NCBI GenBank assembly: GCA_963556255.1 | Contig: OY744604.1 | Location: 21,380,566-21,444,565 of the forward strand | Origin: Allolobophora icterica | Lineage: Eukaryota > Annelida > Clitellata > Crassiclitellata > Lumbricidae | DNA: 64,000 bases | Reading direction: 5' to 3' | Shown here: in pieces, positions 41,824-56,983 of the stretch | How positions within the stretch are numbered: position 1 is the stretch's first letter | Layout: each line of letters starts with the position of its first letter | Program-made: the position numbers and the translations under genes | The notes under the pieces: model-generated | Seen by the model: the letters and a program-made list of their open reading frames with translations, nothing else | What the model was told of the DNA's origin: nothing | Databases searched by the model: none

Positions 41824-41985
41824 AACAATTATCATTTGAACAAACGACATAGTTATTGTATTGTGTTAATACAGATGAGCAAGCGACAATCGAACATCAG
41901 TAAACAAAAATTATCATTTGAACAAACGACATAATTATTATATTAAAGAAAAGTTTGCCATAGTAGTATAAAATAATTTATAACT

Positions 41986-44900
41986 ATGGCATTGTCTACG
42001 AATGAAAAAATTGAACAATTGCTGAGTGAGTTTACTGGTCCCCCAGCTCTTCGAGGTGTTCTACAGAATATCTTAGACGAACCCATTCCAGACGCAGTCA
42101 AGCGACGCTTACTACAGCCACTCCTTCCAAGGCCAATTCCTCCAGTGCGCAAGCATAGAGGGGCGAAACGTAAGGCCTTTCTGGCAGAATTCGACCCACT
42201 CCTAAATAAGAAGGATAGAGGTGGACCACCACCCTTTCTAGTGCACAGAGAGCTAGCCAATCAGCATCTGAGAGACTTCCGCGCAGAAGTGCCGCTTAAT
42301 CACAGGCTGGAAGGAGATGCGTTGGCTTTCTTGAGTGCAATGGAGCACAACATTGAGGCGCAGCTCAATGAAGAGCTGTTGAAACAAGACGGCCTGAAAT
42401 ACTCGCAAGTGTTAACGGTTGAGTTGGAAAAGTTGGCACCAACCGTTGATAATGTGTATGATGGCAACGCGCCCCCTGGCATCATTACCAACACGGCCTA
42501 CTTTCGAAGCAAAGCAGAACCAATTACCAATGCGGGTAAAATCCAAGGGGCTGTTCGGAAGGCCAAGGCCGAAGTACTAAAACTCCTCGAGGAGTACACC
42601 AATGAGGGATCGGGGTGGAGGGTGAGGCGGATTGTGGCGCTAGACCTCGGTGTTGCAAGATATAAACCTTTCAGAGGTAAGAGCTACTTTCCCACACCAA
42701 AGTATATACCCCCTCGTACGGTTATTAATGTAAAGAATAAAGATAACCGATGCTTCGAGTGGGCCATACTAAGCGCCATGTATCCAGTAGGTCATGGTCA
42801 AAATCCGGATCGCCCAACTAAGTATCAGACCCACCTTCAGGAGCTAAAGTTTGACGGTATAGAATTTCCAGTGAAGGTCACAGATATCGACAAGTTTGAG
42901 CGTCAAAACCCAACTATAAGCGTCTCAGTCTTCGGGTGGGATAAAGCTTTGTATCCAATTCACATTTCAAACCGGGCCAGTGTCCACAATATTGACCTTC
43001 TACTACTGGCCGACGACGCAAATGAAAATTTTCATTATGTCTGGATCAAGGACTTGGCCAGAATGCTGTACAAAAACAGCGATCATAAAGAGCGAAAGCA
43101 CCCATGTCGCCGCTGCCTACACATATTCTGTAGACAAGACTTGCTGGATGCCCATATCAAAGATTGTCAGGGCATTAGTAAGAAGCCTCAGCGGATTGAG
43201 ATGCCAAAAGAGGATGAAAATATACTCAAATTCCAGAACCATCGTAAACAGATGCGAGCCCCGTATATCATATACGCAGACTTCGAGGCGTTGAACGTGC
43301 CAGTCCTAAATGCGGCCATGAATCCCAACGAGAGCAACACCAGACAGATAGCTGAGCAGAAACCGTGTAGCTTCTGTTATATAGTGGTCCGATACGATGG
43401 CCGCACGAAGAAACCAGTTTTATACCGCGGAGAAAACGCCGTGGAGGAGTTCCTACAACAACTACAAGGCGAGCTAGCCTCTATCAAACAAAGGCTGGCC
43501 ACCCCAGCTAAGATGGTTATGTCAGCGGCCAATCGTCAATCATTCCGCGAGGCTGCCGAATGTCACATCTGCGGAGAAGCGCTCGAAGAGGATAGAGTTC
43601 GCGACCACTGTCACATTACTGGTAAGTACCGAGGTGCTGCTCATAACGCCTGCAACCTCAAGCTTCGAATATATCCAGATAAGTGCAAGGTACCAGTGGT
43701 CTTCCACAATCTACGAGGTTACGACAGCCACCTCATAATGCAAGCGATAGGCGGCTGTGAGGCCGCACAGGATGAGGAAACTGAAATTAACTGCATCCCA
43801 AACAATATGGAGAAATATATGACATTCAACATTGGACAACTACAGTTCATTGATAGTCTCCAGTTTCTAAACAGCTCGTTGGATAAATTATCAGGAAATC
43901 TGATGCTAGAGGATCTGAAAGTCACAACAGCATATATAAAGGAAAGTTTCGTTCACAATGATAGGACAAAACTAGATCTTTTGAGGCGAAAGGGCGTATA
44001 TTGTTACGAGCACATTGACGATTACCACCGCTTCGAAGAAGACCGACTTCCACCCAAAGAAGCGTTCTACAGCAGGCTGTCCCGAGAGAACATCTCTGAT
44101 GAGGATTATCAACACGCTCAAAGAGTATGGGATGAATTCGAATGTAAGACTCTGGGTGACTATCACGACTTGTATCTCCGTACGGATGTACTCCTACTAG
44201 CCGATGTATTCGAGACCTTCAGAAACACATCGATGAAACACTACAGTCTGGACCCGGCTAACTACTTCAGCCTGCCAGGAATGGCCTGGGACGCTTTGCT
44301 GAAAAAGACGAAAATCGAGCTCGAACTTCTCACCGATATAGACATGCACTTATTTGTAGAGAACGGTCTCCGAGGTGGAATTTCGATGGTATCTAAGCGC
44401 TTCGCAAAGGCTAACAATCCGCAATGCCCAGATCACGATACCACGAAGCCAGACAACTGGATCATGTACCTCGATGCTAATAACCTCTATGGCTGGGCGA
44501 TGCAACAGTCATTGCCAGTTGGAGGATTTAGCTGGGAAAGTCCAACTCTCGATGAAGTGTTGGAAACTCCAGACGACGCGCCTGAAGGCTTCCTGCTCGA
44601 AGTCGATCTTGAGTACCCGGAGCACCTCCACGAATCACATAGCGACTATCCCCTAGCACCGGAGACCCTGACAGTCCAAGAGGAGTGGTTGAGTGACTAT
44701 CAGAATGTGCTTATGAACGAGTTGGGAGGCAAGTTCACAAAGCATGTGAAGTTAGTACCAAGCCTGCGACCTAAGGAGCGGTATGTGGTCCATTATAGAA
44801 ATCTCAAACTATATCACTCGTTGGGGCTGCGAGTTTCTAAGATCCATCGTGCCATTAAATTTAGACAGGAGGCGTGGATGGCTCCATATATCGAGATGAA

Positions 44901-45735
44901 TACAAAATTGAGGGCGAAGGCAACGTCGGAGTTTGAGAAGGATTTCTTCAAACTGGCTAATAATGCGGTCTTTGGAAAGACCATGGAAAATCTTAGAAAA
45001 AGAATCAGAGTTAACCTGGTACCGACCTCAAAAGTTGACAAACTTCGTAAACTAATTGCTGACCCGGCCTACATATCACACAAAATCTTCAACGACCAAC
45101 TCGCCGCGATTCACAGTTTGAAGAACAAGCTCAAGTTAAACAGACCTGTATATGTCGGCCAGGCTGTCCTCGACCTCAGCAAGCATCTGATGTACGACTT
45201 CTGGTACAACGATGTGAAAAACGAGTACGGAGAAAAAGCCCAGTTGCTATATACAGACACAGATAGCCTCTTATTTCAGGTGGAAACTCCGAACGCTTAC
45301 GCCGATATGTGGAATAAAAAACACTTATACGACTTTAGTGAGTTTCCAAAAGACAGCCCATACTACGACGTCGAGAACAAGAAAGTCGTGGGCAAGTTCA
45401 AGGATGAATGTAACGGAGTCGCCATCGCGGAATTCGTAGGATTACGCCCGAAGATGTACTCGATCTTAAAATCGGGTGGTTCAGAGATCAGGAAAGCAAA
45501 AGGCGTTCAGAGAGCAGTTGTGAAGAAGGATCTGCACCACGAGCTATACAAGGAATGCCTGTTCGAACGAGAAGAGATGCGACACACACAAGTCGTGATT
45601 CGAAGCCACGACCACCAAATCGGAGTATACGAGCAGAATAAGATCAGCCTCTCTCCATTAGACACAAAAAAGTGGATATCTCCGGACGGAATAAGAACGC
45701 TGGCATACGGGCACTACAAAATCAACGACGGTTGA
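41986..45735 (+). CDS. PolB: Protein-primed family B DNA polymerase
   Basis: A frame of 1,249 residues starts at the first ATG after an AT-rich leader. An N-terminal region typical of polinton polymerases (CFEWAILSAMYPV, about residue 256) and a C2HC finger (CRRCLHIFCRQDLLDAHIKDC, about 367-387) precede the 3'-5' exonuclease (Exo I YADFEA near 431; Exo II HNLRGYDSH near 574). Between the exonuclease motifs sits an HNH/endonuclease VII-like zinc insert (CHICG..., DHCHITGKYRGAAHNACN, about 525-560). Polymerase motifs follow: A (DANNLYGWAM, near 828), B (NNAVFGKTMENLRKR, near 992) and C (YTDTDS, near 1089). The family copies linear DNA from a protein primer. All catalytic residues are present. 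Its last 14 bp overlap the end of the convergent integrase gene. Confidence 0.95.
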   Translation: MALSTNEKIEQLLSEFTGPPALRGVLQNILDEPIPDAVKRRLLQPLLPRPIPPVRKHRGAKRKAFLAEFDPLLNKKDRGGPPPFLVHRELANQHLRDFRAEVPLNHRLEGDALAFLSAMEHNIEAQLNEELLKQDGLKYSQVLTVELEKLAPTVDNVYDGNAPPGIITNTAYFRSKAEPITNAGKIQGAVRKAKAEVLKLLEEYTNEGSGWRVRRIVALDLGVARYKPFRGKSYFPTPKYIPPRTVINVKNKDNRCFEWAILSAMYPVGHGQNPDRPTKYQTHLQELKFDGIEFPVKVTDIDKFERQNPTISVSVFGWDKALYPIHISNRASVHNIDLLLLADDANENFHYVWIKDLARMLYKNSDHKERKHPCRRCLHIFCRQDLLDAHIKDCQGISKKPQRIEMPKEDENILKFQNHRKQMRAPYIIYADFEALNVPVLNAAMNPNESNTRQIAEQKPCSFCYIVVRYDGRTKKPVLYRGENAVEEFLQQLQGELASIKQRLATPAKMVMSAANRQSFREAAECHICGEALEEDRVRDHCHITGKYRGAAHNACNLKLRIYPDKCKVPVVFHNLRGYDSHLIMQAIGGCEAAQDEETEINCIPNNMEKYMTFNIGQLQFIDSLQFLNSSLDKLSGNLMLEDLKVTTAYIKESFVHNDRTKLDLLRRKGVYCYEHIDDYHRFEEDRLPPKEAFYSRLSRENISDEDYQHAQRVWDEFECKTLGDYHDLYLRTDVLLLADVFETFRNTSMKHYSLDPANYFSLPGMAWDALLKKTKIELELLTDIDMHLFVENGLRGGISMVSKRFAKANNPQCPDHDTTKPDNWIMYLDANNLYGWAMQQSLPVGGFSWESPTLDEVLETPDDAPEGFLLEVDLEYPEHLHESHSDYPLAPETLTVQEEWLSDYQNVLMNELGGKFTKHVKLVPSLRPKERYVVHYRNLKLYHSLGLRVSKIHRAIKFRQEAWMAPYIEMNTKLRAKATSEFEKDFFKLANNAVFGKTMENLRKRIRVNLVPTSKVDKLRKLIADPAYISHKIFNDQLAAIHSLKNKLKLNRPVYVGQAVLDLSKHLMYDFWYNDVKNEYGEKAQLLYTDTDSLLFQVETPNAYADMWNKKHLYDFSEFPKDSPYYDVENKKVVGKFKDECNGVAIAEFVGLRPKMYSILKSGGSEIRKAKGVQRAVVKKDLHHELYKECLFEREEMRHTQVVIRSHDHQIGVYEQNKISLSPLDTKKWISPDGIRTLAYGHYKINDG

Positions 45736-46735
45736 GTATTCTATCGGGGGGTAACTCAGTGCCCATAGGAACCAGAAGTAGCTCTTCACGCACAAAACCG
45801 CGGCCAGGCCCATCAACTAGATGGTACAAAGCCGGTTGACCAGCCCGCCGAACAACATCCAAAATAGCGTGGATGGTGAGCGACCAGTTAGGGTCGGTGG
45901 CTCGTTTGCTTCCACCTTCGAGCTCGCCGGGAGCGTACAAATATCGGACGAGAACGTCGTGTCCGAGAATAGGCTCATCCATTCCCCACAAACGAGTTTT
46001 CATTTGTGAATGAGAGGGCTTCTGTGTCACTTTAGCAGCTTTCATCGCTTCAACCGGCTTCATCTCGAGCAAGCGCGTCGGCTCATCGTTTAGTGCAGCA
46101 ACAACTTCGGGCATCCGGCGAACCCATTCCACTGACCGTTCGGATGACCCCCTTGCAGCCAGGAGCAATTCCTGAGCGTACTGGGCACCGAAAAGTCGCT
46201 CAGCTAGAGTACGGTTAAAGCGTTCAACGATGCCCTGTTGACGATGATTTGCGGCCTGTCCGCGTCTTACAAGAACGTCGTGCTTCGTCAGCAACGGTGT
46301 AAAATCACCCATAAATTCGCGTCCAGGATCGACCTGAAAGAGTCGAGGCCAAGTTAATGGGCCCCTCTTATAGATCCGGCTTAAAGCGGCGGCGACTTCG
46401 GTCGAACTTTTGTTGATCAACGGTTCAGCTTCTTTGTATCGTGAGGCAACATCAACAACAGTGAGAGCGTATTTATAAGTCTTTCGACCTACTTTATCGT
46501 GAGGTAAAAACAAGAGATCGGCTTGGTGTACGGCGTTTGGTCGATTTTCATCGAACTTTGGACGCGGTATGCGGCGTGGAACGGGAAGATAAATCTGCCA
46601 CACCGCTTGTTTCTTCAGCCAATCACGAGCCTCCGCCTCGGAAACTTTGGCGGCTGAGGCTAGTTTCTTCACCGCAGCCTTACCTCGCCAGTAACCTCTA
46701 GGGCTGTAATAGACGGCTGAAAGGTGCTTAGACAT
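45722..46735 (-). CDS. INT: Polinton integrase (retroviral-type DDE)
   Basis: 337 residues from the ATG at 46735. An upstream hydrophobic extension from 46801 is open but lacks integrase character, so I chose the inner start, 75 bp after the preceding gene. The rve core shows D73 (HQADLLFLPH), D136 (QVDPGREFMG) and E171 (GIVERFNRTLAERLF), spaced like retroviral integrases. The C-terminal part has a small beta-barrel/chromo-like region ending YHLVDGPGRGFVREELLLV. It inserts the linear element and produces the 5-6-bp duplication seen here (CGCAT). It is convergent with PolB (14-bp tail overlap). Confidence 0.93.
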   Translation of the reverse strand: MSKHLSAVYYSPRGYWRGKAAVKKLASAAKVSEAEARDWLKKQAVWQIYLPVPRRIPRPKFDENRPNAVHQADLLFLPHDKVGRKTYKYALTVVDVASRYKEAEPLINKSSTEVAAALSRIYKRGPLTWPRLFQVDPGREFMGDFTPLLTKHDVLVRRGQAANHRQQGIVERFNRTLAERLFGAQYAQELLLAARGSSERSVEWVRRMPEVVAALNDEPTRLLEMKPVEAMKAAKVTQKPSHSQMKTRLWGMDEPILGHDVLVRYLYAPGELEGGSKRATDPNWSLTIHAILDVVRRAGQPALYHLVDGPGRGFVREELLLVPMGTELPPDRILNRR

Positions 46736-46800
46736 TTCAGTAATACTATATATTACAAACAGGTAAACACATACACAAATGAATTTCATTTGCGTTTTCA

Positions 46801-46817
46801 TAAATGAAACTCATTTA
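46801..46817. terminator. Short inverted repeat at the 3' end of the PLA2-like gene
   Basis: TAAATGA-AAC-TCATTTA is a perfect 7-bp stem overlapping the stop codon of the gene on minus (46811) and preceding the integrase leader. It might mark an RNA end or a regulatory site. A terminator role in a eukaryotic setting is a guess. Confidence 0.3.
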
Positions 46818-47383
46818 TGGCCCTTCGTTCTGACACCCATCCCCAGCCTCGACTTCGCTGACATAATGGCCGATACCAGCCGCGCATCCTTCTTCTCATA
46901 ATCCGGAGTTTCATCGGTGAGTGCGATCTTCGACGCGGCTGCAGCGAGGATGTCATCTGCGTGATTACGCCCTGGGGTATCTCTATGAACTGCGTAAGCC
47001 ACATCGTGGTGGAGGCACGCACGGTCGAGCTGATTAACACCGTGATAGCGCTGTGACAGCCGTTTATCGAGTTTTGTGAATGGTCCACAGTAAGAGTACT
47101 TTCCTGTATTCTGAAAAGAACCTCCCGGATTATCTTCCGAAGACATACCGGATGGAAGGCTCATATGCATTTCTGGTAGAGGTAGAGCGTTGAGGGCCCT
47201 ATTCAGTAGCGAGCCTCCATAAGTCTCACGAGACTTATGCTTTCGCACTTTAGAAGGCAAAATTTGGCTCTTCTTTGCACCGCAGACGGCACAGGTTCCC
47301 TTCTTGGCTGGCCGACCGTTTCGTAACTCGACGATTGTTTCATTTGAAGTCTCAGTATGTTTCTTACATCGTAGGCAATACAT
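46811..47383 (-). CDS. Zinc-ribbon plus parvovirus-type phospholipase A2-like protein
   Basis: 190 residues from the ATG at 47383. An N-terminal zinc ribbon (C3-x2-C6 ... C31-x2-C34, with NGRPAKKGTCAVCG) matches the small ribbon seen in many adenovirus-like and polinton proteins. Residues 98-145 match the PLA2 fold of parvovirus VP1: a calcium loop YCGPFT, then D120-RAC-LHHDVAY with the catalytic H126-D127 pair, then HADDIL. In parvoviruses this enzyme opens endosomal membranes during entry. Oddity: the calcium loop has Phe where the family normally has its second Gly, so activity may be reduced. It is divergent from the ATPase gene with only 38 bp between the start codons. Confidence 0.85.
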   Translation of the reverse strand: MYCLRCKKHTETSNETIVELRNGRPAKKGTCAVCGAKKSQILPSKVRKHKSRETYGGSLLNRALNALPLPEMHMSLPSGMSSEDNPGGSFQNTGKYSYCGPFTKLDKRLSQRYHGVNQLDRACLHHDVAYAVHRDTPGRNHADDILAAAASKIALTDETPDYEKKDARLVSAIMSAKSRLGMGVRTKGHK

Positions 47384-47421
47384 TGTGTTCGTTGAATACA
47401 ATCATAACTCGTTGTCTCTAT
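47384..47421. promoter_or_regulatory. 38-bp bidirectional gap between divergent start codons
   Basis: The ATGs of the PLA2-like gene (minus) and the ATPase (plus) are separated by only 38 bp, so promoter elements for one must lie in the other's coding region or be extremely compact. No TATA box is visible in the gap. Confidence 0.5.
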
Positions 47422-48108
47422 ATGGAAATAACAAATTTTGACCTCGAAGCCGACGATGGGAAAAAACACCACCATTGGTTGTTGCCATCCAGCATACGGT
47501 GTATAATCTGCGGGCCTAGCGGATGTGGAAAAACAAACCTACTACTCAACCTCCTTCTGAAGAAGGGGTACCTACGTTTTGACCGGCTCTATCTATACTC
47601 AAAGTCTCTGGGACAGGAAAAATATCAGTTCCTCCGGGACTGGGTTACAGAGTTGGAAAAAGTTGCCGGGAAGGAAGTGGCTTCCTTTCACTCTTGCTCA
47701 GATGAAATAGTTCCAGTTGAATCATTAAATAAGAATGCCAGAAGCCTTCTAGTGTTCGATGACGTTATGCTTGAAAAACAGTCGCCCATCGAAAGGTATT
47801 TCACTATGGGTCGACACGGTGGCGCGGACTGCTTCTACTTAACGCAGAATTATTTTCGAATTCCGAAGCAAGCGATCCGTGACAATGCCAATCTTATCGT
47901 CCTCTTCAACCAAGACAGTAAAAATTTGCGAGCCATTCACGATACGTTCGTGGGCGGCGACATGTCTTTCGATGAGTTCCGTACGTTCTTCAGCGAGTGT
48001 GCTGCTCAGCCATATGGATTCGCAGTCATAGATTTGACGTCCAAGGTATACGATGGAAAATATCGTTGCGGGTTCGATCGCTTCTATAAGCCCAAGGCAA
48101 GTATTTAA
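47422..48108 (+). CDS. ATP: FtsK/HerA-type genome-packaging ATPase
   Basis: 228 residues from the ATG at 47422; a longer open frame upstream overlaps the PLA2-like gene and lacks homology. Walker A is GPSGCGKT (31-38), Walker B is LLVFDD (109-114), and a sensor-like YLTQNY lies at 140-145, followed by 'RDNANLIVLF'. This is the A32-type packaging ATPase shared by polintons, virophages, adintoviruses and large DNA viruses, which pumps DNA into the capsid. Length and motifs are complete. It begins the rightward virion gene block. Confidence 0.93.
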   Translation: MEITNFDLEADDGKKHHHWLLPSSIRCIICGPSGCGKTNLLLNLLLKKGYLRFDRLYLYSKSLGQEKYQFLRDWVTELEKVAGKEVASFHSCSDEIVPVESLNKNARSLLVFDDVMLEKQSPIERYFTMGRHGGADCFYLTQNYFRIPKQAIRDNANLIVLFNQDSKNLRAIHDTFVGGDMSFDEFRTFFSECAAQPYGFAVIDLTSKVYDGKYRCGFDRFYKPKASI

Positions 48109-48148
48109 AGACACAATATAGGCAACATATAGTCGACATACAACCACG

Positions 48149-49249
48149 ATGTGGACAAAGGTTTCTTCTAAACAGGAGCGAGACGCGTTGACTCAGGATT
48201 ATTTAGCTCGGAGAAATCGATTGAGACAGCGTTTCGTAGATGAGAAGCTCGGTGAAGCCAACCTTCAGTACGATGCGACAAAGCTTTTCAAACCAATCGC
48301 CACAGCCACGGCTGAATCCCAGGCGGCTACGTCTAAGGAGTTGCAGAAAGTTACCAGCGCTTTACAGGATTTGCCGGCGCAGATTTCAGAGTCTGCTAAT
48401 TTTAACCCGATAGCGGCGTTGTTCGGCGATTCAGCAGGAACAGCTGCTCCAGCGCTTCCAGCGCTTCCAGCATCCCGAATCCCCCCCGCACTGTTAGTTG
48501 ATCCAAACAAATATCTCAACGTCGAGGCAATCATAAGGCACGGTTTCAAACCTCCGAGCGAGCTCGATCTAGCCGACAAGGCAGGTGCCGAAAAGATAAT
48601 CGGTGAGGTCAATCACTATAATCGCCACACCCTGGGCAAAGAGAAAAAGCTGGCTAAAAAGCAAAAAGACGAAGAAAAGGTAGATGCGGTGACTGCAGAT
48701 ATCGAAGCCCTAAGGGAATATAAAAAGCGAATCGATACACTGATAGAGGGCCACACCCTCATCAAAAAGGGAAAGGGTTTCAGTGTCCCAGCCGTTCCTC
48801 TTAAATTACAAGGTAGCGCCTTGGGTGAGCTCTCCGTCGATCCCGTCGCGCTGTCTGCTGGTAGACTGAGAGTGTTTAAAGGTGGTAACCTCGTTCTCGA
48901 ATCTCCGGCCGATGAGTCGTTGTTCAGCCTGTTAACGAAACGCTTCGTTAAGACTAAGCAATACTCGCCTCAAGCAATTGAAACTTTTAAAAAACTCGTA
49001 CAGATGTCTGGTCTGCCTATTCATGGCCGGAAAAGTAAAAAGTTCCAGCTGATTCGAGGCGGCGCGGTGCAGTTCTACAACGACCCAAACGCTCTGGTAG
49101 AGAGGTTGCAGCTTTTGGTGGCCTCTAGGGCCGCGGGAAACACTGGTCTCGGCAACGAAATCTCCGCCATTCTCGACGAGTTACTGCGTTCCGGTGCGAT
49201 CTCCAAAGAGCTGGCACTCGAATTGAATAGAAACATGCTCATAAAATAG
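48149..49249 (+). CDS. Conserved polinton protein of unknown function (366 aa)
   Basis: It starts 40 bp after the ATPase. The N-terminal 80 residues are helical. A Pro/Ala-rich linker follows (PALPALPASRIPPALL, about 105-120), then a strongly charged helix (KEKKLAKKQKDEEK, about 165-180). The C-terminal half is a compact domain with LFSLLTKRFV, 'LVQMSGLPIHGRKSKKFQLI' and 'AGNTGLGNEISAILDELL'. I recognise this C-terminal pattern as common in animal polintons next to capsid genes, but I know of no proven role. A virion-associated or morphogenesis function is inferred from its place between ATPase and penton. Confidence 0.75.
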   Translation: MWTKVSSKQERDALTQDYLARRNRLRQRFVDEKLGEANLQYDATKLFKPIATATAESQAATSKELQKVTSALQDLPAQISESANFNPIAALFGDSAGTAAPALPALPASRIPPALLVDPNKYLNVEAIIRHGFKPPSELDLADKAGAEKIIGEVNHYNRHTLGKEKKLAKKQKDEEKVDAVTADIEALREYKKRIDTLIEGHTLIKKGKGFSVPAVPLKLQGSALGELSVDPVALSAGRLRVFKGGNLVLESPADESLFSLLTKRFVKTKQYSPQAIETFKKLVQMSGLPIHGRKSKKFQLIRGGAVQFYNDPNALVERLQLLVASRAAGNTGLGNEISAILDELLRSGAISKELALELNRNMLIK

Positions 49250-49267
49250 AAATAGAAAACAAAATTC

Positions 49268-50071
49268 ATGGCTCAGATGGAACGCTCGGAGAAACTGCTC
49301 GAAGAAATTAGAGAACTTTTGCAGCCTAAGGAAAATTTTAGTATAGTTGTTTCCTCAGATACTACAGGGTGGACCACGGCTTTCTCACCGCCGCTGTACC
49401 TGGATCCAAAAAGACGCTTTGAGCTTGCTTTGGTCAATCTTGAAACCTATAATTCGATTCCGAACATTGACAGTTCAAATAACAAGTTCGTCTACAGCCC
49501 CACCAATGGACAGACCTGGAAGACGATCATTTTACCCGACGGAAGCTACGAGATCGCACAGATTAATTATGAAATCAGCCGGCAGTTAGAAATGCAAAAT
49601 CCGCCGCCGCCAGGTGTTGCTCAACTCAGCTTTGATTCTCCTATTACTGTAGGAGCTAACGCATCTACCCTTCGCGCCTTCGTAAAGATAACGAAGGCCC
49701 GTTTTAAGGTAGATATGGCCGCATCTACCATCAGGCAAACGCTCGGTTTTAACCCTCAGACGCTTAGTCTTGGTTATAAAGAGGGAGAAAATCCAGTCGA
49801 TATTCTCCGGGTGGACACAATCCTGGTAAATTGTGATATTATCTCTGGATCGTATCGAAATGGTAGCCAGCTGCCAGTAATCTACAGTTTTTTCCCGGAT
49901 GTGTCGCCCGGCTACAAGGTAATCGAGTCTCCGAAAAATCTGGTGTACCTACCAGTTGCACCGGCTGGTAACGTACAGGGCATTCGTGTGTGGCTGACCG
50001 ACCAGAATGGTGAACAATTAAACCTCCGCGGTGAGACAGTAACTATAAGGTTTCACATCCGCAGTGCGTAA
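49268..50071 (+). CDS. Minor capsid (penton-like, single jelly roll) candidate
   Basis: 267 residues, 18 bp after the previous gene. After a short helical start, the sequence is beta-rich: 'SIVVSSDTTGWTTAFSPPLY', 'RRFELALVNLETYNSIPNID', 'ILPDGSYEIAQINYEI'. It ends with 'VRVWL'-like strands and 'GETVTIRFHIRSA'. This pattern (n-terminal strands, L-V-N/Y-N-S-I-x-N-I, G-x-Y-x-I-x-x-I-N) is the one described for polinton minor capsid proteins, related to the virophage penton at the fivefold vertices. Assignment rests on motif memory and on its place just before the major capsid gene. Confidence 0.8.
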   Translation: MAQMERSEKLLEEIRELLQPKENFSIVVSSDTTGWTTAFSPPLYLDPKRRFELALVNLETYNSIPNIDSSNNKFVYSPTNGQTWKTIILPDGSYEIAQINYEISRQLEMQNPPPPGVAQLSFDSPITVGANASTLRAFVKITKARFKVDMAASTIRQTLGFNPQTLSLGYKEGENPVDILRVDTILVNCDIISGSYRNGSQLPVIYSFFPDVSPGYKVIESPKNLVYLPVAPAGNVQGIRVWLTDQNGEQLNLRGETVTIRFHIRSA

Positions 50072-50093
50072 ATGTTCACACTTAAATATTCTA

Positions 50094-50552
50094 ATGTTGG
50101 TTCTTGGAATTAAAAAGCGGCGTCGTGTCGTGGGTGGTGGACTTTTCGACTGGATACCCAAAATCGCGGGTTTCCTTGGCCGTGCAGGCTCCTTCATTTC
50201 GGCGAATAGAGGCACAATCACAAACGTTGCCAAGGCGGTTGGTAATGTCGCGAAAGCCGGCGCCACAACAGCATCTGCCGTCAGGCAAATTGTTGATGCC
50301 GTGAAAGCGAGACGCGCTGCGGCCGTAAATGAAGCTCATTTACGAAATGAAAATTCATCTGCCGCGCCTGTTGTTCCCGCACCTTTGGAGAAGGCGCTCA
50401 GCGACAAGAGCATTGAATACTTAAAACAACTGGCTGTGAGTCCGCCACCCGTTGTTCCGACAATGGCCGACATAAACAGCCGCATTGCTGGATCCGGTTT
50501 CAAAACTATAAAGCCGAGTCGTTGTGGTAGGGGTCTGTTTCTTGCAAAATGA
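50094..50552 (+). CDS. Small basic amphipathic virion-core candidate (pVI/pX-like)
   Basis: 152 residues from the ATG at 50094, 22 bp after the penton stop. The frame is open upstream to a GTG overlapping the penton end, but the ATG is preferred. It opens with a basic patch (IKKRRR) and GGGLFDWIPKIAGFLG, then a long Ala/Val/Gly-rich amphipathic stretch (about 25-75). A Pro-rich tail ends in a Gly/Arg-rich motif. This resembles small adenoviral core or membrane-lytic proteins (pX, pVI) that are trimmed by the viral protease. Function is inferred from composition and neighbours only. Confidence 0.6.
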   Translation: MLVLGIKKRRRVVGGGLFDWIPKIAGFLGRAGSFISANRGTITNVAKAVGNVAKAGATTASAVRQIVDAVKARRAAAVNEAHLRNENSSAAPVVPAPLEKALSDKSIEYLKQLAVSPPPVVPTMADINSRIAGSGFKTIKPSRCGRGLFLAK

Positions 50553-50663
50553 AAAAAATTTCCGACTAATTCACAAAACGGAAAAAAATGTTTAACCCAC
50601 CACATATGAAATTAATTTGCAACATGATTAATAATTGAAGCTTGAACTTTTTTAGCTATAATA

Positions 50664-51959
50664 ATGGCGGCATTTGACGTGCCGAGTGAAATGTTGGACA
50701 TCGCTTCGGCGGTACCCGATGATAATAGCATCGAATCGTTTGAATACCGCGAGTATGAATCACAAAACCCTGCGGCTATTAACAACGGCCAGGCCATACA
50801 GATAGACATCCAGAACCAAGACATTTTCACACAGCCTTCCAAGAGCTACCTTCTTGTGGAGGGCAGGCTTACCACAACAGGCGCAGCTTACATCGCAGAC
50901 TCGTTAGTGTCATTCGTCAACAACGCCATCCCGTACATGTTTTCTCAAATTCGATACCTGGCTAACAATACCGAGATAGAGAATGTTATGTCACCTGGGC
51001 AAGCCACGACGATGAAAGGCATGCTGGTTTACGGCGATGATTTTTCCAAAGACGAAGGTTTAAACATGTGTTGGCAGAAGGACACGACCGCGGCGGCGGC
51101 GGCTGCGAATATCGGCTTCGAGGCCCGTCGACTGATGATCATTGGAAAACCCGTCCCTATTGGAACGTTTTCATTCATCGTTCCCTTAAGACATCTATTC
51201 GGTTTTTGCGATGATTATCACAAGGTCGTATACGGGATCAAACACTCTTTACTGCTGAGCCGGCAGGGGGATGCAGACGCGATCTTCAAGGAAGCCGCTG
51301 CGGCCAATGGCCAGATCGCGCTGACTAAACTCTCCTGGTTCATGCCGCATATAATACCCGCTTTGGAGTATAAAAGCATGCTTATGAAGCAGATTGAAGC
51401 CAAGGTTAAGGTACCTGTAGCATTCCGCGCCATGCAATGCGACAACATTGCGGTGCCACGAGCGACGACTTTTTCCTGGCGTTTGAGCGTTAAGTCGGGC
51501 ACGGAAAAGCCACGCTGGATTCTTGTTGCTTTTCAGACTGGAAAGAATGCACATCAAGGCCAGAATCCGGCACTGTTTGACCATGTGCAGGTTCGCAACA
51601 TTTTCGCTATGCTCAACAGCGATCGCTACCCGGTGGTTGACATGAATCTCGACTTCACCAAGAGGACAACCTCTCGCGCTTACAAGGCCCTACGTGACTT
51701 CAAGGAAGAATATTGCGGCATAGACGCGCGTGAATCGTCATGCCAACCGACACCAATCGAATTTGTAGATTTGTTTCCGATCTTCGTTCTGGACGTGCGC
51801 AGGCAATCTGAACGACTTAAAACCTCTGTACAGGACATACAAATCAAGGTGGACTTTAACGAAGGGGTACCAAATAATACGACGGCATATGCCGTCCTGA
51901 TCAGCGACCGACTCCTGAATTTTGAATCGGATGGCAGCAAATTCAACGTCGTCTACTAG
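50664..51959 (+). CDS. MCP: Major capsid protein (double jelly roll)
   Basis: 431 residues, 111 bp after the previous gene behind an AT-rich leader (AGCTATAATA just before the ATG). The sequence fits polinton/adintovirus hexons: an N-terminal 'ESQNPAAINNGQAIQIDIQN', a mid 'PIGTFSFIVPLRHLFGFCDD', then 'ILVAFQTGKNAHQGQNPALF' and 'VRNIFAMLNSDRYPVVDMNL', ending 'ISDRLLNFESDGS'. Two jelly-roll halves are expected at about 40-200 and 225-425. It would form the trimeric capsomers of an icosahedral shell. A Cys/Ala-rich loop (AAAAAANIG, about 143) is unusual but does not interrupt the fold. Confidence 0.9.
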   Translation: MAAFDVPSEMLDIASAVPDDNSIESFEYREYESQNPAAINNGQAIQIDIQNQDIFTQPSKSYLLVEGRLTTTGAAYIADSLVSFVNNAIPYMFSQIRYLANNTEIENVMSPGQATTMKGMLVYGDDFSKDEGLNMCWQKDTTAAAAAANIGFEARRLMIIGKPVPIGTFSFIVPLRHLFGFCDDYHKVVYGIKHSLLLSRQGDADAIFKEAAAANGQIALTKLSWFMPHIIPALEYKSMLMKQIEAKVKVPVAFRAMQCDNIAVPRATTFSWRLSVKSGTEKPRWILVAFQTGKNAHQGQNPALFDHVQVRNIFAMLNSDRYPVVDMNLDFTKRTTSRAYKALRDFKEEYCGIDARESSCQPTPIEFVDLFPIFVLDVRRQSERLKTSVQDIQIKVDFNEGVPNNTTAYAVLISDRLLNFESDGSKFNVVY

Positions 51960-52016
51960 AAATCGGTTTTTCACATTTAGATACAAGGCCCTCTTTTAGA
52001 TATATTTTTTCCAAAA

Positions 52017-52589
52017 ATGAAAACTGAATACGTTGCGTTCGGCCTTTCACTGACCGAAGGGCAAAAGCAAACATTAGCTAGAGCTGCGCGCGCCGGCACT
52101 GGTGCCACGATCCGACTCGCTCATGGCCAGCTTCGTGGAGAAGATAAGCTCGCGCTTACGAAAGTTCAAGCCGCCCGAATCGTGAGGAAGATTTCGGAAG
52201 GCGTTGGCATGGAGCTGAGATTCACCAAAACACAATTGAAAAAGATGACAAAATCGGGCGGATTTCTTCCACTACTGGCTCTCCTCCCGCTGATTTTTGG
52301 CGGGTTAACCGCGGTGGGTGCCGCGGCTGGAGGGGCCGCCGAGGTGGCAAAGGCCGTGCACAACAAACAGGCCAGCGATGCAGAGGCTCTGCGCAAGAAA
52401 CAGGCCAGCGATGCGGCCCAAGCCGAGAAAAAACGGATCGACGACGCGGCTTTAGCAGAGGCCGCGCGTCACAATCGCGAACTCGAAGCTCAGGTCCGCG
52501 GGACCGGTTTATATCTCGGGCGCCAGACTTATGGTGGTTGCTGTTCAATGTGTAAAGGATCCGGCCTGTACATCGGACAAAAAAACTAA
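52017..52589 (+). CDS. Membrane-active/core protein with C-terminal Cys motif; -1 frameshift donor
   Basis: 190 residues, 57 bp after the MCP stop. The N-terminal half has two related sub-motifs (LSLTEGQKQTLARAARAGTG, then LTKVQAARIVRKISEGVG and FTKTQLKKMTKSGG), a pattern recurrent in polintons. A hydrophobic Gly/Ala/Leu segment follows (about 80-112; GGFLPLLALLPLIFGGLTA), then a charged Ala-rich helix with a duplicated KQASDA. Near the end are a CCSMC motif and twin GTGLYLG/GSGLYIG repeats. It is similar in style to adenovirus pVI. The final codons CAA-AAA-AAC-TAA contain a perfect A_AAA_AAC slippery site, and the protease lies in the -1 frame immediately downstream, so a fused product is likely. 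Confidence 0.7.
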   Translation: MKTEYVAFGLSLTEGQKQTLARAARAGTGATIRLAHGQLRGEDKLALTKVQAARIVRKISEGVGMELRFTKTQLKKMTKSGGFLPLLALLPLIFGGLTAVGAAAGGAAEVAKAVHNKQASDAEALRKKQASDAAQAEKKRIDDAALAEAARHNRELEAQVRGTGLYLGRQTYGGCCSMCKGSGLYIGQKN

Positions 52590-52623
52590 AACCGCTGAGC
52601 AACTTTGACATAGAGAAAGTTGC
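52580..52623 (+). promoter_or_regulatory. Candidate programmed -1 ribosomal frameshift signal
   Basis: The heptamer A_AAA_AAC (52580-52586) is in the correct register with the upstream frame and directly followed by its TAA stop (52587-52589). Downstream, GCAACTTT (52599-52606) pairs perfectly with AAAGTTGC (52616-52623) around a 9-nt loop. An outer ACCGC (52591-52595) can pair with GCGGT (52645-52649), starting 4 nt after the heptamer. The -1 frame (codon CTA at 52586) is open into the protease. All elements of a classical frameshift site are present; function is inferred. Confidence 0.65.
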
Positions 52624-52960
52624 CAGAGCGCTGCCGCATTTCCGCGGTGTTTTCATGCGAGATGGTCTGCCCGCCGTGGCTCGTGAGAAGGAGTGTGGAG
52701 TTGTTAATCTGGATTCCGGTTCTGGTGATGGTACTCACTGGGTCGCCTATTGGATAGATGGACCTACAGCCGTCTATTTTGATAGTTATGGGCTGGATCC
52801 ACCTCTCGAAATTTCTCGATATTTAAACCGTTCCATAAGAACTCAAACATTTCAGCTACAGGGGCCCGATGATGTGGTATGTGGTCATCTCTGCCTGACC
52901 GTGCTAAGAGAGCTCACTGCTGGAAAGAATTTTGAAGATATCATTCTTGACCTATGTTAG
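52586..52960 (+). CDS. PRO: Adenain-type (C5/Ulp1-like) maturation protease, entered by -1 frameshift
   Basis: The first ATG (52655) would give only 101 residues and would cut off the N-terminal part of the protease. The same frame is open back to 52556 without any ATG, and the 23 codons from 52586 contain residues expected at the adenain N-terminus (SNFDIE..., FRGVF). The catalytic set is complete: His in GTHWVAYW (52736-52738), Asp in YFDSYG (52781-52783) and Cys in VVCGHLC (52880-52882). It would cleave core and capsid precursors in the particle. At about 124 residues it is short for the family. Alternatives to frameshifting are a non-AUG start (CTG at 52595) or splicing. Confidence 0.85.
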   Translation, partial: LKPLSNFDIEKVARALPHFRGVFMRDGLPAVAREKECGVVNLDSGSGDGTHWVAYWIDGPTAVYFDSYGLDPPLEISRYLNRSIRTQTFQLQGPDDVVCGHLCLTVLRELTAGKNFEDIILDLC

Positions 52961-52987
52961 ACTTCAATCACCTTTTTGTATATAAAA

Positions 52988-55159
52988 ATGCCGGTTGATA
53001 AATTTGGAAGAGACGGTGGAGGTGGGTTTGGAGGGGGGCAGATAAGCGCCGCTGGGCTCGTCCACAAGGCTGGTGATACCATGATGGGAATTCTGTCGGC
53101 TGGAGGTTTTCGACTGACAAACGTGGGAACGCCCACGATGGAAACAGACGCCGCGACAAAGGCTTATGCAGACATCATAGATCAGGACAACTTACAAATC
53201 ACCGGTGGAACGATGTCTGGTGTTCTAAAAATGGGTGGTCACAAAGTTACTGGGCTGCCCACAGACGCTGGTGCGTCTGAAAGCGACGCTGCGAGCTGGG
53301 CACAAGTGGTACGATACGCGGACCAGAAGGCGACCGCAGCCGAAAATCATGCAGACCAAAAGCTTATCGATGCCAGGCAGTACACGGACGAGAAGAATGC
53401 GGGGCTGAGAGATTCCGTTAGGCGGTATGCAGATGACAAGGACCTTATTGTTAAAAGTTATGTTAACGAGCAAGATGTTATCGTCAGGAATGCGTGCGTG
53501 CTCAAATCCGGCGGCGTAATGACTGGAAGTTTAGTTATGGGTGGCCACCGAGTTACTGGGCTCCCAACAGAAATTTCAGGATCCGATAGCGACGCAGCGA
53601 GTTGGAAACAAGTGTCAACAGCGGTCGCTGGCGCTCTAGTAAAACTCGATAGAGTACCAACGGAGTCGTTGCATGTGGTGAATAAGCGGTATGTAGATTC
53701 CCGCGACGCTTCTTACAGACAGTACGTGGATGAGAAGGTCACCACCGCTAGAAGATATGTGGACGAGAAGCATGCTATCGTAAGAGGCGGGCATGTGCTC
53801 AAAACCGGCGATTCTATGACTGGTGATTTGACCATGGGTGGTAAAAGAGTGACTGGGCTGCCAACAGAAATTCCAGGATCCGATAGCGACGCCGCGAGTT
53901 TGAAACAGGTGACGCAGCTGATCAGCAACGCCACTAAGAATAATGATACGGCGCCGGCTGGACCAAAGTACTTGACTAACAAACGGTATGTGGACGCGAA
54001 AAACGCTGAGATTGGAGCTTCAGTTAGACTCCATGCGGACCAGAAAGCTGAAGCTGCTAAGACGTACGCCAACGAGCAAGATGTTATCGTTAGGAGCGCA
54101 TGCGTGCTTAAAGCTGGTGATGCAATGACAGGTGATTTAATCATGGGCGGTAAAAGAGTTACTGGGCTCCCTACGGGCGCAGCAACGTCCGAAAGCGACG
54201 CGACGAGTATGGCACAAGTATCGAAGCTGATCGCCGACAACATGACAAAGAGTGATAGAGTACCAACAGAACCGTTGCATGTGACAAATAAACGATACGT
54301 TGACGTGAAAAACGCTGAGATTGGAGCTTCCGTTAGACTCTATGCGGACCAGAAAGTTGAAGCTGCTAAGAGGTACGCCAACGAGCAAGATGTTATCGTT
54401 AGGAGCGCATGCGTGCTCAAATCCGGCAGTACCATGACCGGTGATCTGGCTATGGGTGGTAAAAGAGTGACTGGACTCCCAACGGAAATTTCAGGATCCG
54501 ATAGCGACGCTGTGAGTTTGAAACAAGTTACGCAGCTGATCACCAACGCCACTACGGATAATGTTACGCTGCCCTCGGGACCATGGTACCTGACCAACAA
54601 GCAGTATGTAGACAGAGAGATAGCTAATGAAAGGCGATACGCGACGAGCATCAAGATTCTCAACTACAGCGGCCACATTCCGCCCCTATCCAGAAACGTT
54701 TCCGAAACGGGTTTTATTGCCTCGGCCAACGAATCTTTACCCACTAACCCGCCTCATATGGCATTCAACTCGGGAGTGAGAGGTGAGTGGAAGACGGCGT
54801 CCACATCGAGAGCCAGTATTTTGGATCAGGGTAGAGGGACTTGGTTACAGATTGAATGCCCGACGCCTGTGCGAGTATGGAAGGTTAGTCTGGCTGGGGG
54901 ATCTAGTCCTACTGCACCACGTATCACGTCCTGGGAGATTTATGGGACTCCACCCACCGATTCGACGAGATTCAATGCTCTCATTTCCTCCACTGCCACT
55001 TTGACTAATTCTGCACAAGAGTTCACCTTCACTGATGACAGAGTATACAAAAAATTCAGGCTGATGGTCTTGGCCACCAGCCCGCCACAACCTACTTTTG
55101 GAATATCCCACTTCCAGATCTATACATATTTTAAACACGAGGGACAGTCAGTAGTATAG
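52988..55159 (+). CDS. Repeat-built fibre-like attachment protein with discoidin-like tip
   Basis: 723 residues from the ATG at 52988. After a Gly-rich start come six units of about 100 residues (at about 28, 72, 174, 273, 376 and 479), each opening with G-x-x-M-x-G-x-L-x-M-G-G-x-x-V-T-G-L-P and D-A-(A/V)-S. They are linked by 'NKRYVDAKNAEIGASV' and charged coiled-coil-like segments. This is the signature of bacteriophage tail-fibre shafts. The C-terminal 125 residues (from about 600) look like an F5/8-type C (discoidin) jelly roll: 'TWLQIECPTPVRVWKVSLAG', 'ITSWEIYG', 'FRLMVLATS', 'FGISHFQIYTYF'. By position and build it is the best candidate for a receptor-binding fibre. DNA repeats within 53203-54600 are very similar, implying recent expansion. 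Confidence 0.75.
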   Translation: MPVDKFGRDGGGGFGGGQISAAGLVHKAGDTMMGILSAGGFRLTNVGTPTMETDAATKAYADIIDQDNLQITGGTMSGVLKMGGHKVTGLPTDAGASESDAASWAQVVRYADQKATAAENHADQKLIDARQYTDEKNAGLRDSVRRYADDKDLIVKSYVNEQDVIVRNACVLKSGGVMTGSLVMGGHRVTGLPTEISGSDSDAASWKQVSTAVAGALVKLDRVPTESLHVVNKRYVDSRDASYRQYVDEKVTTARRYVDEKHAIVRGGHVLKTGDSMTGDLTMGGKRVTGLPTEIPGSDSDAASLKQVTQLISNATKNNDTAPAGPKYLTNKRYVDAKNAEIGASVRLHADQKAEAAKTYANEQDVIVRSACVLKAGDAMTGDLIMGGKRVTGLPTGAATSESDATSMAQVSKLIADNMTKSDRVPTEPLHVTNKRYVDVKNAEIGASVRLYADQKVEAAKRYANEQDVIVRSACVLKSGSTMTGDLAMGGKRVTGLPTEISGSDSDAVSLKQVTQLITNATTDNVTLPSGPWYLTNKQYVDREIANERRYATSIKILNYSGHIPPLSRNVSETGFIASANESLPTNPPHMAFNSGVRGEWKTASTSRASILDQGRGTWLQIECPTPVRVWKVSLAGGSSPTAPRITSWEIYGTPPTDSTRFNALISSTATLTNSAQEFTFTDDRVYKKFRLMVLATSPPQPTFGISHFQIYTYFKHEGQSVV
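53203..54600 (+). repeat. Tandem repeat array inside the fibre gene (about 300-bp period)
   Basis: Near-identical words recur about every 300 bp: 'gttactgggctccc/gcc', 'ggatccgatagcgacgc' (53580, 53876, 54494) and 'gcaagatgttatcgt' (53471, 54079, 54388). Alternate units are more alike than adjacent ones, suggesting duplication of two-unit blocks. Confidence 0.8.
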
Positions 55160-55165
55160 AAAAAT

Positions 55166-55720
55166 ATGACTGACACGCACTACAAGATTCGGGGGTATCT
55201 CCGTCAACACGGAGAAATAGACATGTGCAAATACAGCATAGACAGTCTAGGTGATGTGGGCCACTGGGGGTACGACATCCCGAAGCCCACCGCAGAGCTA
55301 TTGACCGCGGTGCCTCAACAGCACATCGACTTCGTGTCTGACGATTACCACAGCCGTGATATCTATACGGCGGCCGGAACGGTAACCACGAGTGCGTGGC
55401 AAACTCTTCCATTGACCGCTGCGCGTTTTCCGTGTATAAGTTTGCAAACCACCAATCAGGGGGTTTCGTTAGAGGGCGGGTTCTGGAAGCTTACAGTCTT
55501 TGGTGTTTGCGGTGGTGATGCAACAGTTCGCGTTATAGCACCGGCAGCTGCTGGGGGTAGCATCGATCGTACAGTTGACATTCAAAGTGGACAATTTGAT
55601 GCATCTAGGGCAATATTCGTTCCAGGACAAACGAGTTTCCGAATTGAAGGCAAAAAGAGAGGCGTTGAAAGTACTTCATCTATCGACTTAAACGTAACTT
55701 TACTAATAGAGCAACTATAA
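55166..55720 (+). CDS. Small beta-rich virion-surface candidate (184 aa)
   Basis: It starts 6 bp after the fibre stop behind an AT-rich 'tatagaaaaat'. The N-terminal third is loop-like with Cys and aromatic residues. The rest reads as alternating beta strands (VTTSAWQTLPLTAARFPCIS, GGFWKLTVFGVCGGDATVRV, FVPGQTSFRIEGKKRG, IDLNVTLLIEQL), the pattern of a small jelly-roll or TNF-like head. It is probably co-expressed with the fibre and could be a second tip or base protein. I do not recognise a family. Confidence 0.6.
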   Translation: MTDTHYKIRGYLRQHGEIDMCKYSIDSLGDVGHWGYDIPKPTAELLTAVPQQHIDFVSDDYHSRDIYTAAGTVTTSAWQTLPLTAARFPCISLQTTNQGVSLEGGFWKLTVFGVCGGDATVRVIAPAAAGGSIDRTVDIQSGQFDASRAIFVPGQTSFRIEGKKRGVESTSSIDLNVTLLIEQL

Positions 55721-55726
55721 AAAACA

Positions 55727-56332
55727 ATGGCTTTGTATCCAACGCTTACGGAGCCGACAATTTCGTCAGACACGAAGTCGCAGACGTTTCGTCTGCAGAA
55801 GATCGGTGAAGTAGAAGCATTCCTGAGATCTGAGGCGATAAGTCGAGGACAACTGTGCAAAAAGTATAAGAGGGTTGTAGATGTGGCTAATGGGGCCTCG
55901 GCCGGCCTTGCTATAGTTAGTCTTGGAACTGGGGTGGGTGGGGCAGCTATGTTGGCCACTGGTATTGGTTTTATTCCTGGTATTGTTCTGGAGAGTTTGG
56001 CCATAGCGACCAGTTTTCTGGATATTATCGGGAATGTTGTTAGCCGATCGTTTGTTGCTAAAGCTTCAAAACACGACGAAATTTGTATTTTGGCGGAGAG
56101 TAAGCTAAACACTGTTCATGACCACATTTCTAAGGCGTTAGAGGACACGGCTATTAGCGATGAAGAATATAAACTTATTCTGGGAGAGGAGGAGAAATAT
56201 AGAACGATGAAACGTGATATACAAAGCAAGAATGGAAAAAAAGAGTTGCCGAGTCAAAGCAAAGACCAGATGGTGGCAGAACTAATCAAGAAACTAACCA
56301 GCGCTGGGTCTTCTCCGCGAACCACGATATAA
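55727..56332 (+). CDS. Polinton membrane protein with conserved C-terminal helix (201 aa)
   Basis: It starts 6 bp after the previous gene. An N-terminal helical part is followed by a long hydrophobic Gly/Ala-rich stretch (about 55-108; SLGTGVGGAAMLATGIGFIP) that could cross the membrane once or twice. The C-terminal half is charged and helical, with 'KHDEICILAESKLNTVHDHI' and 'ISDEEYKLILGEEEKYRTMK'. I recall the latter motif from many animal polintons and from host-annotated hypothetical proteins, without a known role. It is the last gene before the right terminal region. Confidence 0.65.
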   Translation: MALYPTLTEPTISSDTKSQTFRLQKIGEVEAFLRSEAISRGQLCKKYKRVVDVANGASAGLAIVSLGTGVGGAAMLATGIGFIPGIVLESLAIATSFLDIIGNVVSRSFVAKASKHDEICILAESKLNTVHDHISKALEDTAISDEEYKLILGEEEKYRTMKRDIQSKNGKKELPSQSKDQMVAELIKKLTSAGSSPRTTI

Positions 56333-56420
56333 AAATTTTCATCGTAGGCGGTTGGGGTGGTGAGTCTGTAATTCCTAGCGCACCACCACCGTACGATTAG
56401 CGGAGTTATAATTTTTACTG

Positions 56421-56863
56421 GCACACTCCAATGGTTTGGGCCGGCCTCGTGGGAGGGTCTCGGCCGGCAGCAAACGACACTCTTGCGGTTTGATGTGTTG
56501 GGGCAATCCACGATCCTTATTTTTTGGCTTTGGCCGAATTGGCTTAGAGACGGTCTTTATATCAAAGGACTTTCTATTGAGCCTGATTTCAAAGACTCAC
56601 TTAACACCACGATTCAAAAGACTTCTAAGCCATGATAGCCATAGGCACTGCTTGGAAACCAATCTTTGATAAGGGTCTGTGGGCCCTGTCCCGAAGCCGC
56701 TCAGTGTGACACTGTGACACTTGTGACCATATTATCAGTCACAACTATGAAAATGGTCACACAAAGCGTTCGTAGGCCCACAGGAGGCCCTGGAAGTCGG
56801 CCTGCTATAATTGTCCGTGGGTTTCAGGACCCTCTGGACGCCTAGATGGCATAGATCGGCATC
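56421..56863. repeat. Right inner terminal region of the Polinton (diverged inverted repeat)
   Basis: It contains two segments inverted relative to the left end: about 56431-56478 with 41443-41498 (core GCCGGCCTCGTGGGAGG), and 56623-56675 with 41341-41394. The spacers are much longer on this side (about 188 and 146 bp against 34 and 48 bp), so the left end has lost sequence or the right has gained it. Confidence 0.75.
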
Positions 56864-56983
56864 CTCTTAATTCAATGAAATAACAGGATGGTGGGGACAA
56901 AAAAATTGGGGTGGTGGAGACCATCCCCTGGTAATTTTAACATAATTACGGTGCTGCCCCCAAGACCCCATAGGACCCCTACT
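56864..56983 (-). repeat. Right terminal inverted repeat of the Polinton
   Basis: Exact complement of 41188-41307 over 120 bp, followed by target duplication CGCAT at 56984-56988. Confidence 0.95.

What the first reader, a model, noticed from the sequence alone, without database searches (positions are those of the whole stretch)
52575..52740. Probable programmed -1 ribosomal frameshift making the Polinton protease
The protease frame has no ATG in front of its conserved N-terminus. At the end of the preceding gene the codons read CAA-AAA-AAC-TAA, a perfect in-register A_AAA_AAC heptamer directly before the stop. The -1 frame from that point is open into the protease. An 8-bp perfect hairpin (52599-52623), with a possible outer stem starting 4 nt after the heptamer, lies downstream. 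The protease would then be a low-level C-terminal fusion to a membrane-active core protein, a retrovirus-like way to dose and package a protease. I do not know of this being described for Polintons.
Basis: partly seen in the sequence, partly recalled or inferred. Interest (0 to 1): 0.88.

Follow-up and report, generated by a model that had tools for sequence, protein, structure and literature searches.

The report
Polinton protease via ribosomal frameshift
A virus-like transposon in this 1.1-billion-base genome has no ordinary start codon in front of its protease; a slippery seven-base sequence kept in its relatives would likely make some ribosomes slip back one base at the end of the preceding core-protein gene and add the protease to that protein, much as some retroviruses make theirs.

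Summary
In a complete ~15.8-kb Polinton, the core-protein gene (52017-52589) ends CAA-AAA-AAC-TAA, and the adenain-type protease lies in the -1 frame from that heptamer, with no ATG before its conserved N-terminus.

It is not chance. In 80 copies read from the same genome, all have TAA at this point and 74 keep A7-C before it. The 21 protease codons before the first in-frame ATG show pN/pS 0.10, so they evolve as protein; 75 of 80 copies have no ATG that could start them, and the other five carry indels. A Leu codon there varies (CTG, TTG, CTT), against CUG initiation. In related elements the core ends K-N-stop (23 of 38) and the protease frame reads KKL; three overlapping gene pairs fit only the -1 register. 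The predicted fold begins at the junction.

The downstream stem exists in the window, but its pairs are not conserved; the stimulator is open. The core protein is pX/mu-like with an adenain-type motif, suggesting self-release. Other Polinton lineages appear to use their own start codon. A preprint already floats a Hexon-Adenain frameshift in adintoviruses. No frameshifting was measured.

The parts
41188..56983 (.). Polinton/Maverick element (15.8 kb)
   Evidence: terminal inverted repeats flanked by a 6-bp direct repeat CGCATA that overlaps the left end by one base; DNA_pol_B_2, rve integrase, Pox_A32-type ATPase and double-jelly-roll domain by Pfam
41188..41327 (+). left terminal inverted repeat arm
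   Evidence: 140 nt, 96% complementary to 56844-56983
56844..56983 (-). right terminal inverted repeat arm
52017..52589 (+). pX/mu-like core protein gene (190 aa), the zero frame
   Evidence: open frame; Adeno_PX in 25 of 36 aligned family members at E<=0.1, window E 0.026
52494..52508 (+). VRGTG, core residues 160-164: adenain-type cleavage motif (L-x-G-x-G in most relatives)
   Evidence: column 160 nearly invariant Leu, G162 and G164 invariant in 36 aligned rows; AVP motif from PMC4246237 (passage); cleavage inferred
52553..52555 (+). TAA in the protease frame upstream of the site; no ATG between it and the conserved N-terminus
52580..52586 (+). slippery heptamer A AAA AAC in register with the core gene
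   Evidence: run A7-C before TAA in 74 of 80 copies; A AAA AAC or AAT pinned in three relatives by overlapping proteins
52587..52589 (+). zero-frame stop TAA, directly after the heptamer
   Evidence: TAA at this point in 80 of 80 copies
52586..52960 (+). adenain-type protease in the -1 frame (LKPLSNFD..., 124 aa)
52595..52626 (+). stem-loop downstream of the heptamer, 8-nt spacer (possible stimulator)
   Evidence: z -2.82; not supported by covariation
52655..52657 (+). first ATG in the protease frame, inside the fold; too late to give the conserved N-terminus
   Evidence: the 21 codons before it have pN/pS 0.10

Best explanation
The protease of this Polinton is most likely made by programmed -1 ribosomal frameshifting: ribosomes ending the pX-like core gene would slip at the conserved A AAA AAC in front of the stop, and a minority would go on into the protease frame and make a core-protease fusion. 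Shown: the heptamer in register, its retention in paralogues and relatives, the absence of an upstream ATG in 75 of 80 copies of this genome, and protein-coding constraint on the codons just after the slip point. Inferred: that slippage really occurs and at a minority rate, so that far more core protein than protease is made; that the core part carries the fusion into particles; and that the protease then cuts itself free at the L/V-x-G-x-G motif about 26 residues before the slip point. Adenovirus offers a comparable imbalance: about 7-50 protease copies against 100-300 of processed mu per particle (PMC7998265, passages).
For: Register and heptamer in the window. 80 loci of the same family: TAA at the site in 80, run A7-C in 74; no ATG in the protease frame upstream in 75, a stop within 13 codons upstream in 44. 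Codons 1-21 before the first in-frame ATG: pN/pS 0.10 against 0.16 for the rest, 68 distinct frames, mean identity 93%. Predicted fold (mean pLDDT 93.4) aligns from residue 2 with adenain 4ekf residue 1. Relatives: three core/protease pairs, matched by source and contig length, fit only in the -1 register, overlaps 37-40 nt; zero-frame KN-stop with -1-frame KKL forces A AAA AAC or A AAA AAT. 10 of 15 protease upstream peptides decode the core motif CxGxGLY in the -1 register, 1 of 15 in +1; controls 0 and 3 of 1240. Of 38 near-clade core proteins that reach the motif, 23 end KN-stop and 7 KN plus one residue; of 143 other core-like proteins 2 and 5. A AAA AAC is listed as gag-pro slippery site of MMTV, IAP, BLV and HTLV (PMC3835772 table, passages).
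Against: No translation data. The stem breaks in many copies and shows no compensatory support (80.1% of cells paired; all 500 shuffles as high; sliding the partners gives 29-55%, but the stem was drawn from one of these sequences), and some copies fold no better than shuffles. In the 15 relatives decoded, the gene caller found some start upstream of KK: 12 proteins begin with M, 2 with V, 1 with L; some sources may print M for any NTG start, but a real ATG is not excluded there, and P0016 has M directly before KKV. Inside the window's clade P0009 lacks KK; a neighbouring group begins MPLSNFD. Two near-clade cores read on in the third frame through a shorter A run (P0122, P0244), and one pair fits the +1 register (P0249/P0012); I read these as indel copies. 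In-frame fusions occur: P0250, one of 150 core matches with a 326-aa frame, one of 150 protease matches with 327 aa.
Confidence: 0.82

Rival explanations
1. RNA polymerase slippage on the A run adds one A to some transcripts, so the fusion is made by ordinary translation of edited mRNA.
For: The window has seven As in a row; run-length variants A6, A8 and A9 exist in 4 of 80 copies; an added base would give the same fusion.
Against: Five relatives read Phe directly before KKL (P0002, P0003, P0007, P0008, P0010); Phe codons end in T or C, so their run is at most six As, which by general knowledge is short for polymerase slippage, while a heptamer A AAA AAC or AAT still fits. In this genome the base after the run is C in 78 of 80 copies, which slippage on As alone does not need.
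Confidence: 0.07
2. The protease starts at a codon of its own: a non-AUG codon such as the CTG of PLSN (giving SNFD... as in lineages whose protease begins MSNFD), or, in some relatives, an ATG buried in the core gene.
For: Other lineages have a Met at that very position (P0092, P0102 and others); the window has CTG there; 12 of 15 decoded relatives begin with a printed M upstream of KK.
Against: The codon is CTG in 39, TTG in 20, CTT in 20 and CGG in 1 of 80 copies: Leu is kept, the start-like codon is not. KK and P before it are kept in relatives. In this genome 75 of 80 copies have no ATG upstream. The starts called in relatives lie at different places, and many decode as NTG made by the core motif's Cys codons.
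Confidence: 0.06
3. The protease has its own spliced or internally started mRNA, and the heptamer is a by-product of a conserved K-N ending of the core protein.
For: Transcription of this element was not examined; one AG lies at 52598-52599 inside the CTGAGC of PLS.
Against: Splicing there would leave PL non-coding, but Pro is kept in 68 of 68 distinct frames and Leu in 67 of 68 through synonymous change. Upstream exons could not supply the KKL kept in relatives. A K-N ending alone does not force an A before AAA nor the -1 register.
Confidence: 0.04
4. Decayed transposon: the protease is dead and the arrangement is an accident.
For: 96% of vertebrate Maverick loci were reported as eroded (PMC8097293, passages).
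Against: pN/pS 0.10-0.16 over 68 distinct frames and 78 of 80 full-length frames (but the sample was drawn from the best protease matches); the same arrangement in metagenome proteins.
Confidence: 0.01

Closest known systems
Retroviral gag-pro -1 frameshifting (MMTV, IAP, BLV, HTLV)
   Same: same heptamer A AAA AAC; spacers of 6-8 nt listed there, 8 nt here (PMC3835772 table, passages); structural protein in the zero frame and protease in the -1 frame
   Different: DNA transposon/virus with a cysteine protease of the adenain type; stop codon directly after the heptamer; no conserved stem found here and pseudoknots not scanned
Predicted adintovirus Hexon-Adenain fusion (PMC11071296, section 16, read)
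   Same: adenovirus-like element, structural protein joined to adenain by a putative -1 slippery site
   Different: there the partner is the major capsid protein, mentioned in one sentence after KnotInFrame analyses; here it is the pX-like core protein, with evidence from codons and overlapping frames
Adenovirus protease and its pVI-derived cofactor (PMC4246237, passages)
   Same: adenain fold; an (M/I/L)xGx|G-like motif in a core protein, followed by a Cys-bearing peptide
   Different: in adenovirus the protease is a separate product that is activated by a peptide cut from pVI; here it would arrive fused to a core protein
African swine fever virus pS273R
   Different: one larger protein; that it is a single-frame gene is recalled, not checked

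Membership tests
programmed -1 ribosomal frameshift site | X XXY YYZ heptamer in the zero-frame register | tested here: met
   52580-52586
programmed -1 ribosomal frameshift site | -1 frame open downstream into a coherent protein domain | tested here: met
   124-aa adenain fold
programmed -1 ribosomal frameshift site | heptamer and register conserved in homologues | tested here: met
   exceptions in the Against line
programmed -1 ribosomal frameshift site | stimulatory RNA structure several nt downstream | tested here: inconclusive
   present in the window, pairs not conserved; pseudoknots not scanned
programmed -1 ribosomal frameshift site | measured frameshifting or a fusion product | not testable with these tools
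   needs reporter assay or mass spectrometry
Polinton/Maverick | PolB, rve integrase, packaging ATPase, double-jelly-roll capsid, protease, inverted repeats, 6-bp target duplication | tested here: met
adenain (adenovirus-type cysteine protease) | fold, and aligned HW and CG motifs (catalytic role of His and Cys recalled) | tested here: met
adenovirus pX/mu core protein | Adeno_PX profile match | tested here: inconclusive
   25 of 36 aligned members at E<=0.1, best 3.2e-6; window 0.026, below Pfam's cut-off
retroviral gag-pro | protease homologous to retroviral aspartic protease | tested here: not met
   the protease is adenain-like; it may work like gag-pro but is not a member

The most novel reading that the evidence does not exclude
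A DNA transposon-virus lineage independently arrived at the retroviral gag-pro solution with the same heptamer: it makes its protease only as a frameshift extension of a core protein. The fusion sets the dose and carries the protease into the particle, and an adenain-type site in the core part frees the protease together with a Cys-rich peptide that could act as a built-in cofactor.
Probability: 0.5. Interest if true: 0.88.

Novelty: new variant of a known kind. Interest (0 to 1): 0.76.

Why it matters
Whether Polintons form virions is an open question. Constraint on what looks like a dosing and packaging device for a maturation protease, also seen in metagenome relatives, argues that particles mattered to this lineage. 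It would be a gag-pro-like frameshift in a eukaryotic dsDNA element with evolutionary rather than only motif-based support, and a simple reporter can test it. It also warns that gene callers cut some of these proteases short (several start at the internal MRD).

Tried and rejected
Stop-codon readthrough: after TAA the zero frame stops again after two codons (TAA AAC CGC TGA). Reinitiation at the next in-frame ATG (52655): it would drop the first helix and strand and strongly constrained codons. Upstream ATG in the -1 frame: absent in 75 of 80 copies; not excluded in relatives. Stem conservation: tested, not supported. Rfam over 52400-52900: no match at E<=1. Relatives' DNA in viral contigs and phage records: none found; genome contigs gave one, L001, whose protease has its own ATG. 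A second Polinton family in this genome was sought with P0009 and P0116; neither query was answered. One search read the zero frame one base off; one search replaces it. Papers: the listings of searches showed no paper that I could recognise as describing a Polinton core-protease frameshift; of the papers opened I saw passages, and one whole section (PMC11071296, section 16). PMC5009743 has none of the terms polinton, maverick, adenovir, dsDNA virus, DNA viruses in its held part. Starrett 2021 (PMC8502044) is not held.

Full report

The observation. The core gene ends CAA-AAA-AAC-TAA; A AAA AAC occupies 52580-52586 in register and TAA follows at once. The protease frame is closed by TAA at 52553-52555 and has no ATG until 52655. 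Readthrough of the stop cannot reach the protease. The predicted fold begins at the junction: model residue 2 is the first aligned, with adenain residue 1 (4ekf), and the first helix and strand (residues 6-13, 19-24) lie before or up to that ATG (codon 24).

Is the N-terminal stretch translated? The host genome (1.12 Gb) gave 1653 and 1641 first-look candidates for two protease queries and 1566 for the core protein, of which 150 each were scored, so the family is very large. I read 80 junctions (selected, not random). 78 have a full protease frame, 68 distinct. The 21 codons before the first ATG show pS 0.234, pN 0.024, ratio 0.10; the remaining codons 0.16. These codons therefore evolve as protein. 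Yet 75 of 80 copies have no ATG in the open protease frame upstream (up to 171 codons, as far as the fetched stretch goes), and 44 of 80 have a stop within 13 codons. The five with an ATG are the four with a changed A run (L051, L066, L072, L073) and L031, whose core reading is out of frame further upstream. The Leu codon of PLSN is CTG, TTG, CTT or CGG in 39, 20, 20 and 1 copies, so it is no conserved CUG start.

Is the site kept? The run is A7-C before TAA in 74 of 80; the others are A7-G, A7-A, A6-C and A8-C (one each) and A9-C (two). Of 150 scored core matches one has a 326-aa frame, long enough to include the protease, and of 150 protease matches one has 327 aa: in-frame fusions occur but are rare.

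Relatives. Protease homologues (120 of 139 listed) carry KKL, KKV, KKQ or KKR shortly before PLSN in the window's clade and beside it. On a tree of 70 rows the label KK (17 rows) needs 4 changes against 15.4 in shuffles; 15 of the 16 rows in the window's clade carry it (P0009 does not), and P0017 and P0020 lie beside groups that begin MPLSNFD or MTNFD (36 of 120 rows without a usable N-terminus were first dropped, four of them put back, and 19 near-copies thinned; many forks are unresolved). Three core/protease pairs that agree in source and contig length fit together only in the -1 register, with 37-40 nt overlap. A zero-frame K-N-stop with a -1-frame K-K-L leaves only A AAA AAC or A AAA AAT. 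Of 15 protease upstream peptides, 10 decode the core motif CxGxGLY in the -1 register and one in +1; of 1240 control peptides none and three. All 15 have a start called upstream of KK by definition (12 print M, 2 V, 1 L), so absence of ATG is shown in DNA for this genome only. Of 64 near-clade core proteins (my cut by rank), 38 reach that motif in frame: 23 end KN-stop, 7 KN plus one residue, 1 KK-stop, 2 read on in the third frame, 1 is an in-frame fusion with the protease (P0250), 4 are other; 26 do not match my pattern, two of which also end KN. Of 143 other core-like proteins 2 end KN and 5 KN plus one residue. One further pair fits the +1 register (P0249/P0012); the core motif is out of frame in P0249, so I read it as an indel copy.

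Structure. The 54 nt after the heptamer form a stem-loop with 8-nt spacer, z -2.82; three longer pieces are unremarkable. Across 28 distinct copies the stem keeps 80.1% of its cells, against 29-55% when slid, but 14 rows break one A-U pair and 12 another, and there is no covariation over shuffles. I treat the stimulator as unproven. Deltaretroviral gag-pro sites with the same heptamer were generally believed to use simple stem-loops (PMC3835772, passages, which also propose pseudoknots).

Mechanism. The best reading is -1 slippage of ribosomes on A AAA AAC, giving mostly core protein and some core-protease fusion. Polymerase slippage could also act on seven As, but five relatives have a Phe codon right before KKL and so at most six As. 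The core family has a near-invariant L-x-G-x-G (V in the window) about 26 residues before the slip point, like the AVP motif (M/I/L)xGx|G (PMC4246237, passage); 26 of 47 near-clade proteins have the strict form in their last 40%, 32 with V, Q or N allowed (some of the 47 are incomplete). I infer self-release there. Adenovirus packages about 7-50 protease copies and 100-300 of processed mu (PMC7998265, passages), a ratio that a minority frameshift would give.

Limits. No expression data; relatives are unnamed proteins; the copies are related to one another and selected; other Polinton lineages (MPLSNFD, MTNFE, MSNFDL groups; L001 with a verified ATG) appear to use their own start, so this is a lineage trait. 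The concept has a one-sentence forerunner for Hexon-Adenain in adintoviruses (PMC11071296, section 16).

Noticed in passing
whole genome G000: About 1600 first-look candidates each for the protease (1653, 1641) and core protein (1566): an unusually large Polinton expansion; mean pairwise synonymous difference among 68 distinct protease frames is near 0.2.
   Followed up: partly
50049-50552 (+): Small protein with two adenain-type motifs (VVGGG at residue 27, IAGSG at 146) and a Cys-bearing C-terminal tail; could be a pVI counterpart that supplies a protease cofactor.
   Followed up: no
P0250 (ENA contig of 3107 bases): A natural single-frame fusion of core protein and protease, joined at ...GLFLSKK-ISPLSNFD; either a fixed fusion or a homopolymer error.
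   Followed up: partly
G000:C4:69585290-69585856 and L066: Two genomic copies in which core and protease seem to share one long open frame (326 and 327 aa).
   Followed up: partly
P0105 and P0108: A distant protease clade has KKL several residues before PARPLTN; possibly a second slippery site; decoding was inconclusive.
   Followed up: partly
52961-55159 (+): Long protein with repeated GGxxVTGLPT units, by eye like trimeric tail fibres; not searched.
   Followed up: no
L001 (JAKSCW010000563.1): A Polinton-like contig filed under a Balneolales bacterial MAG, probably mis-binned; its protease has its own ATG.
   Followed up: partly
46811-47401 (-): ORF joining DUF5679 and a phospholipase A2-like domain next to the integrase.
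   Followed up: no
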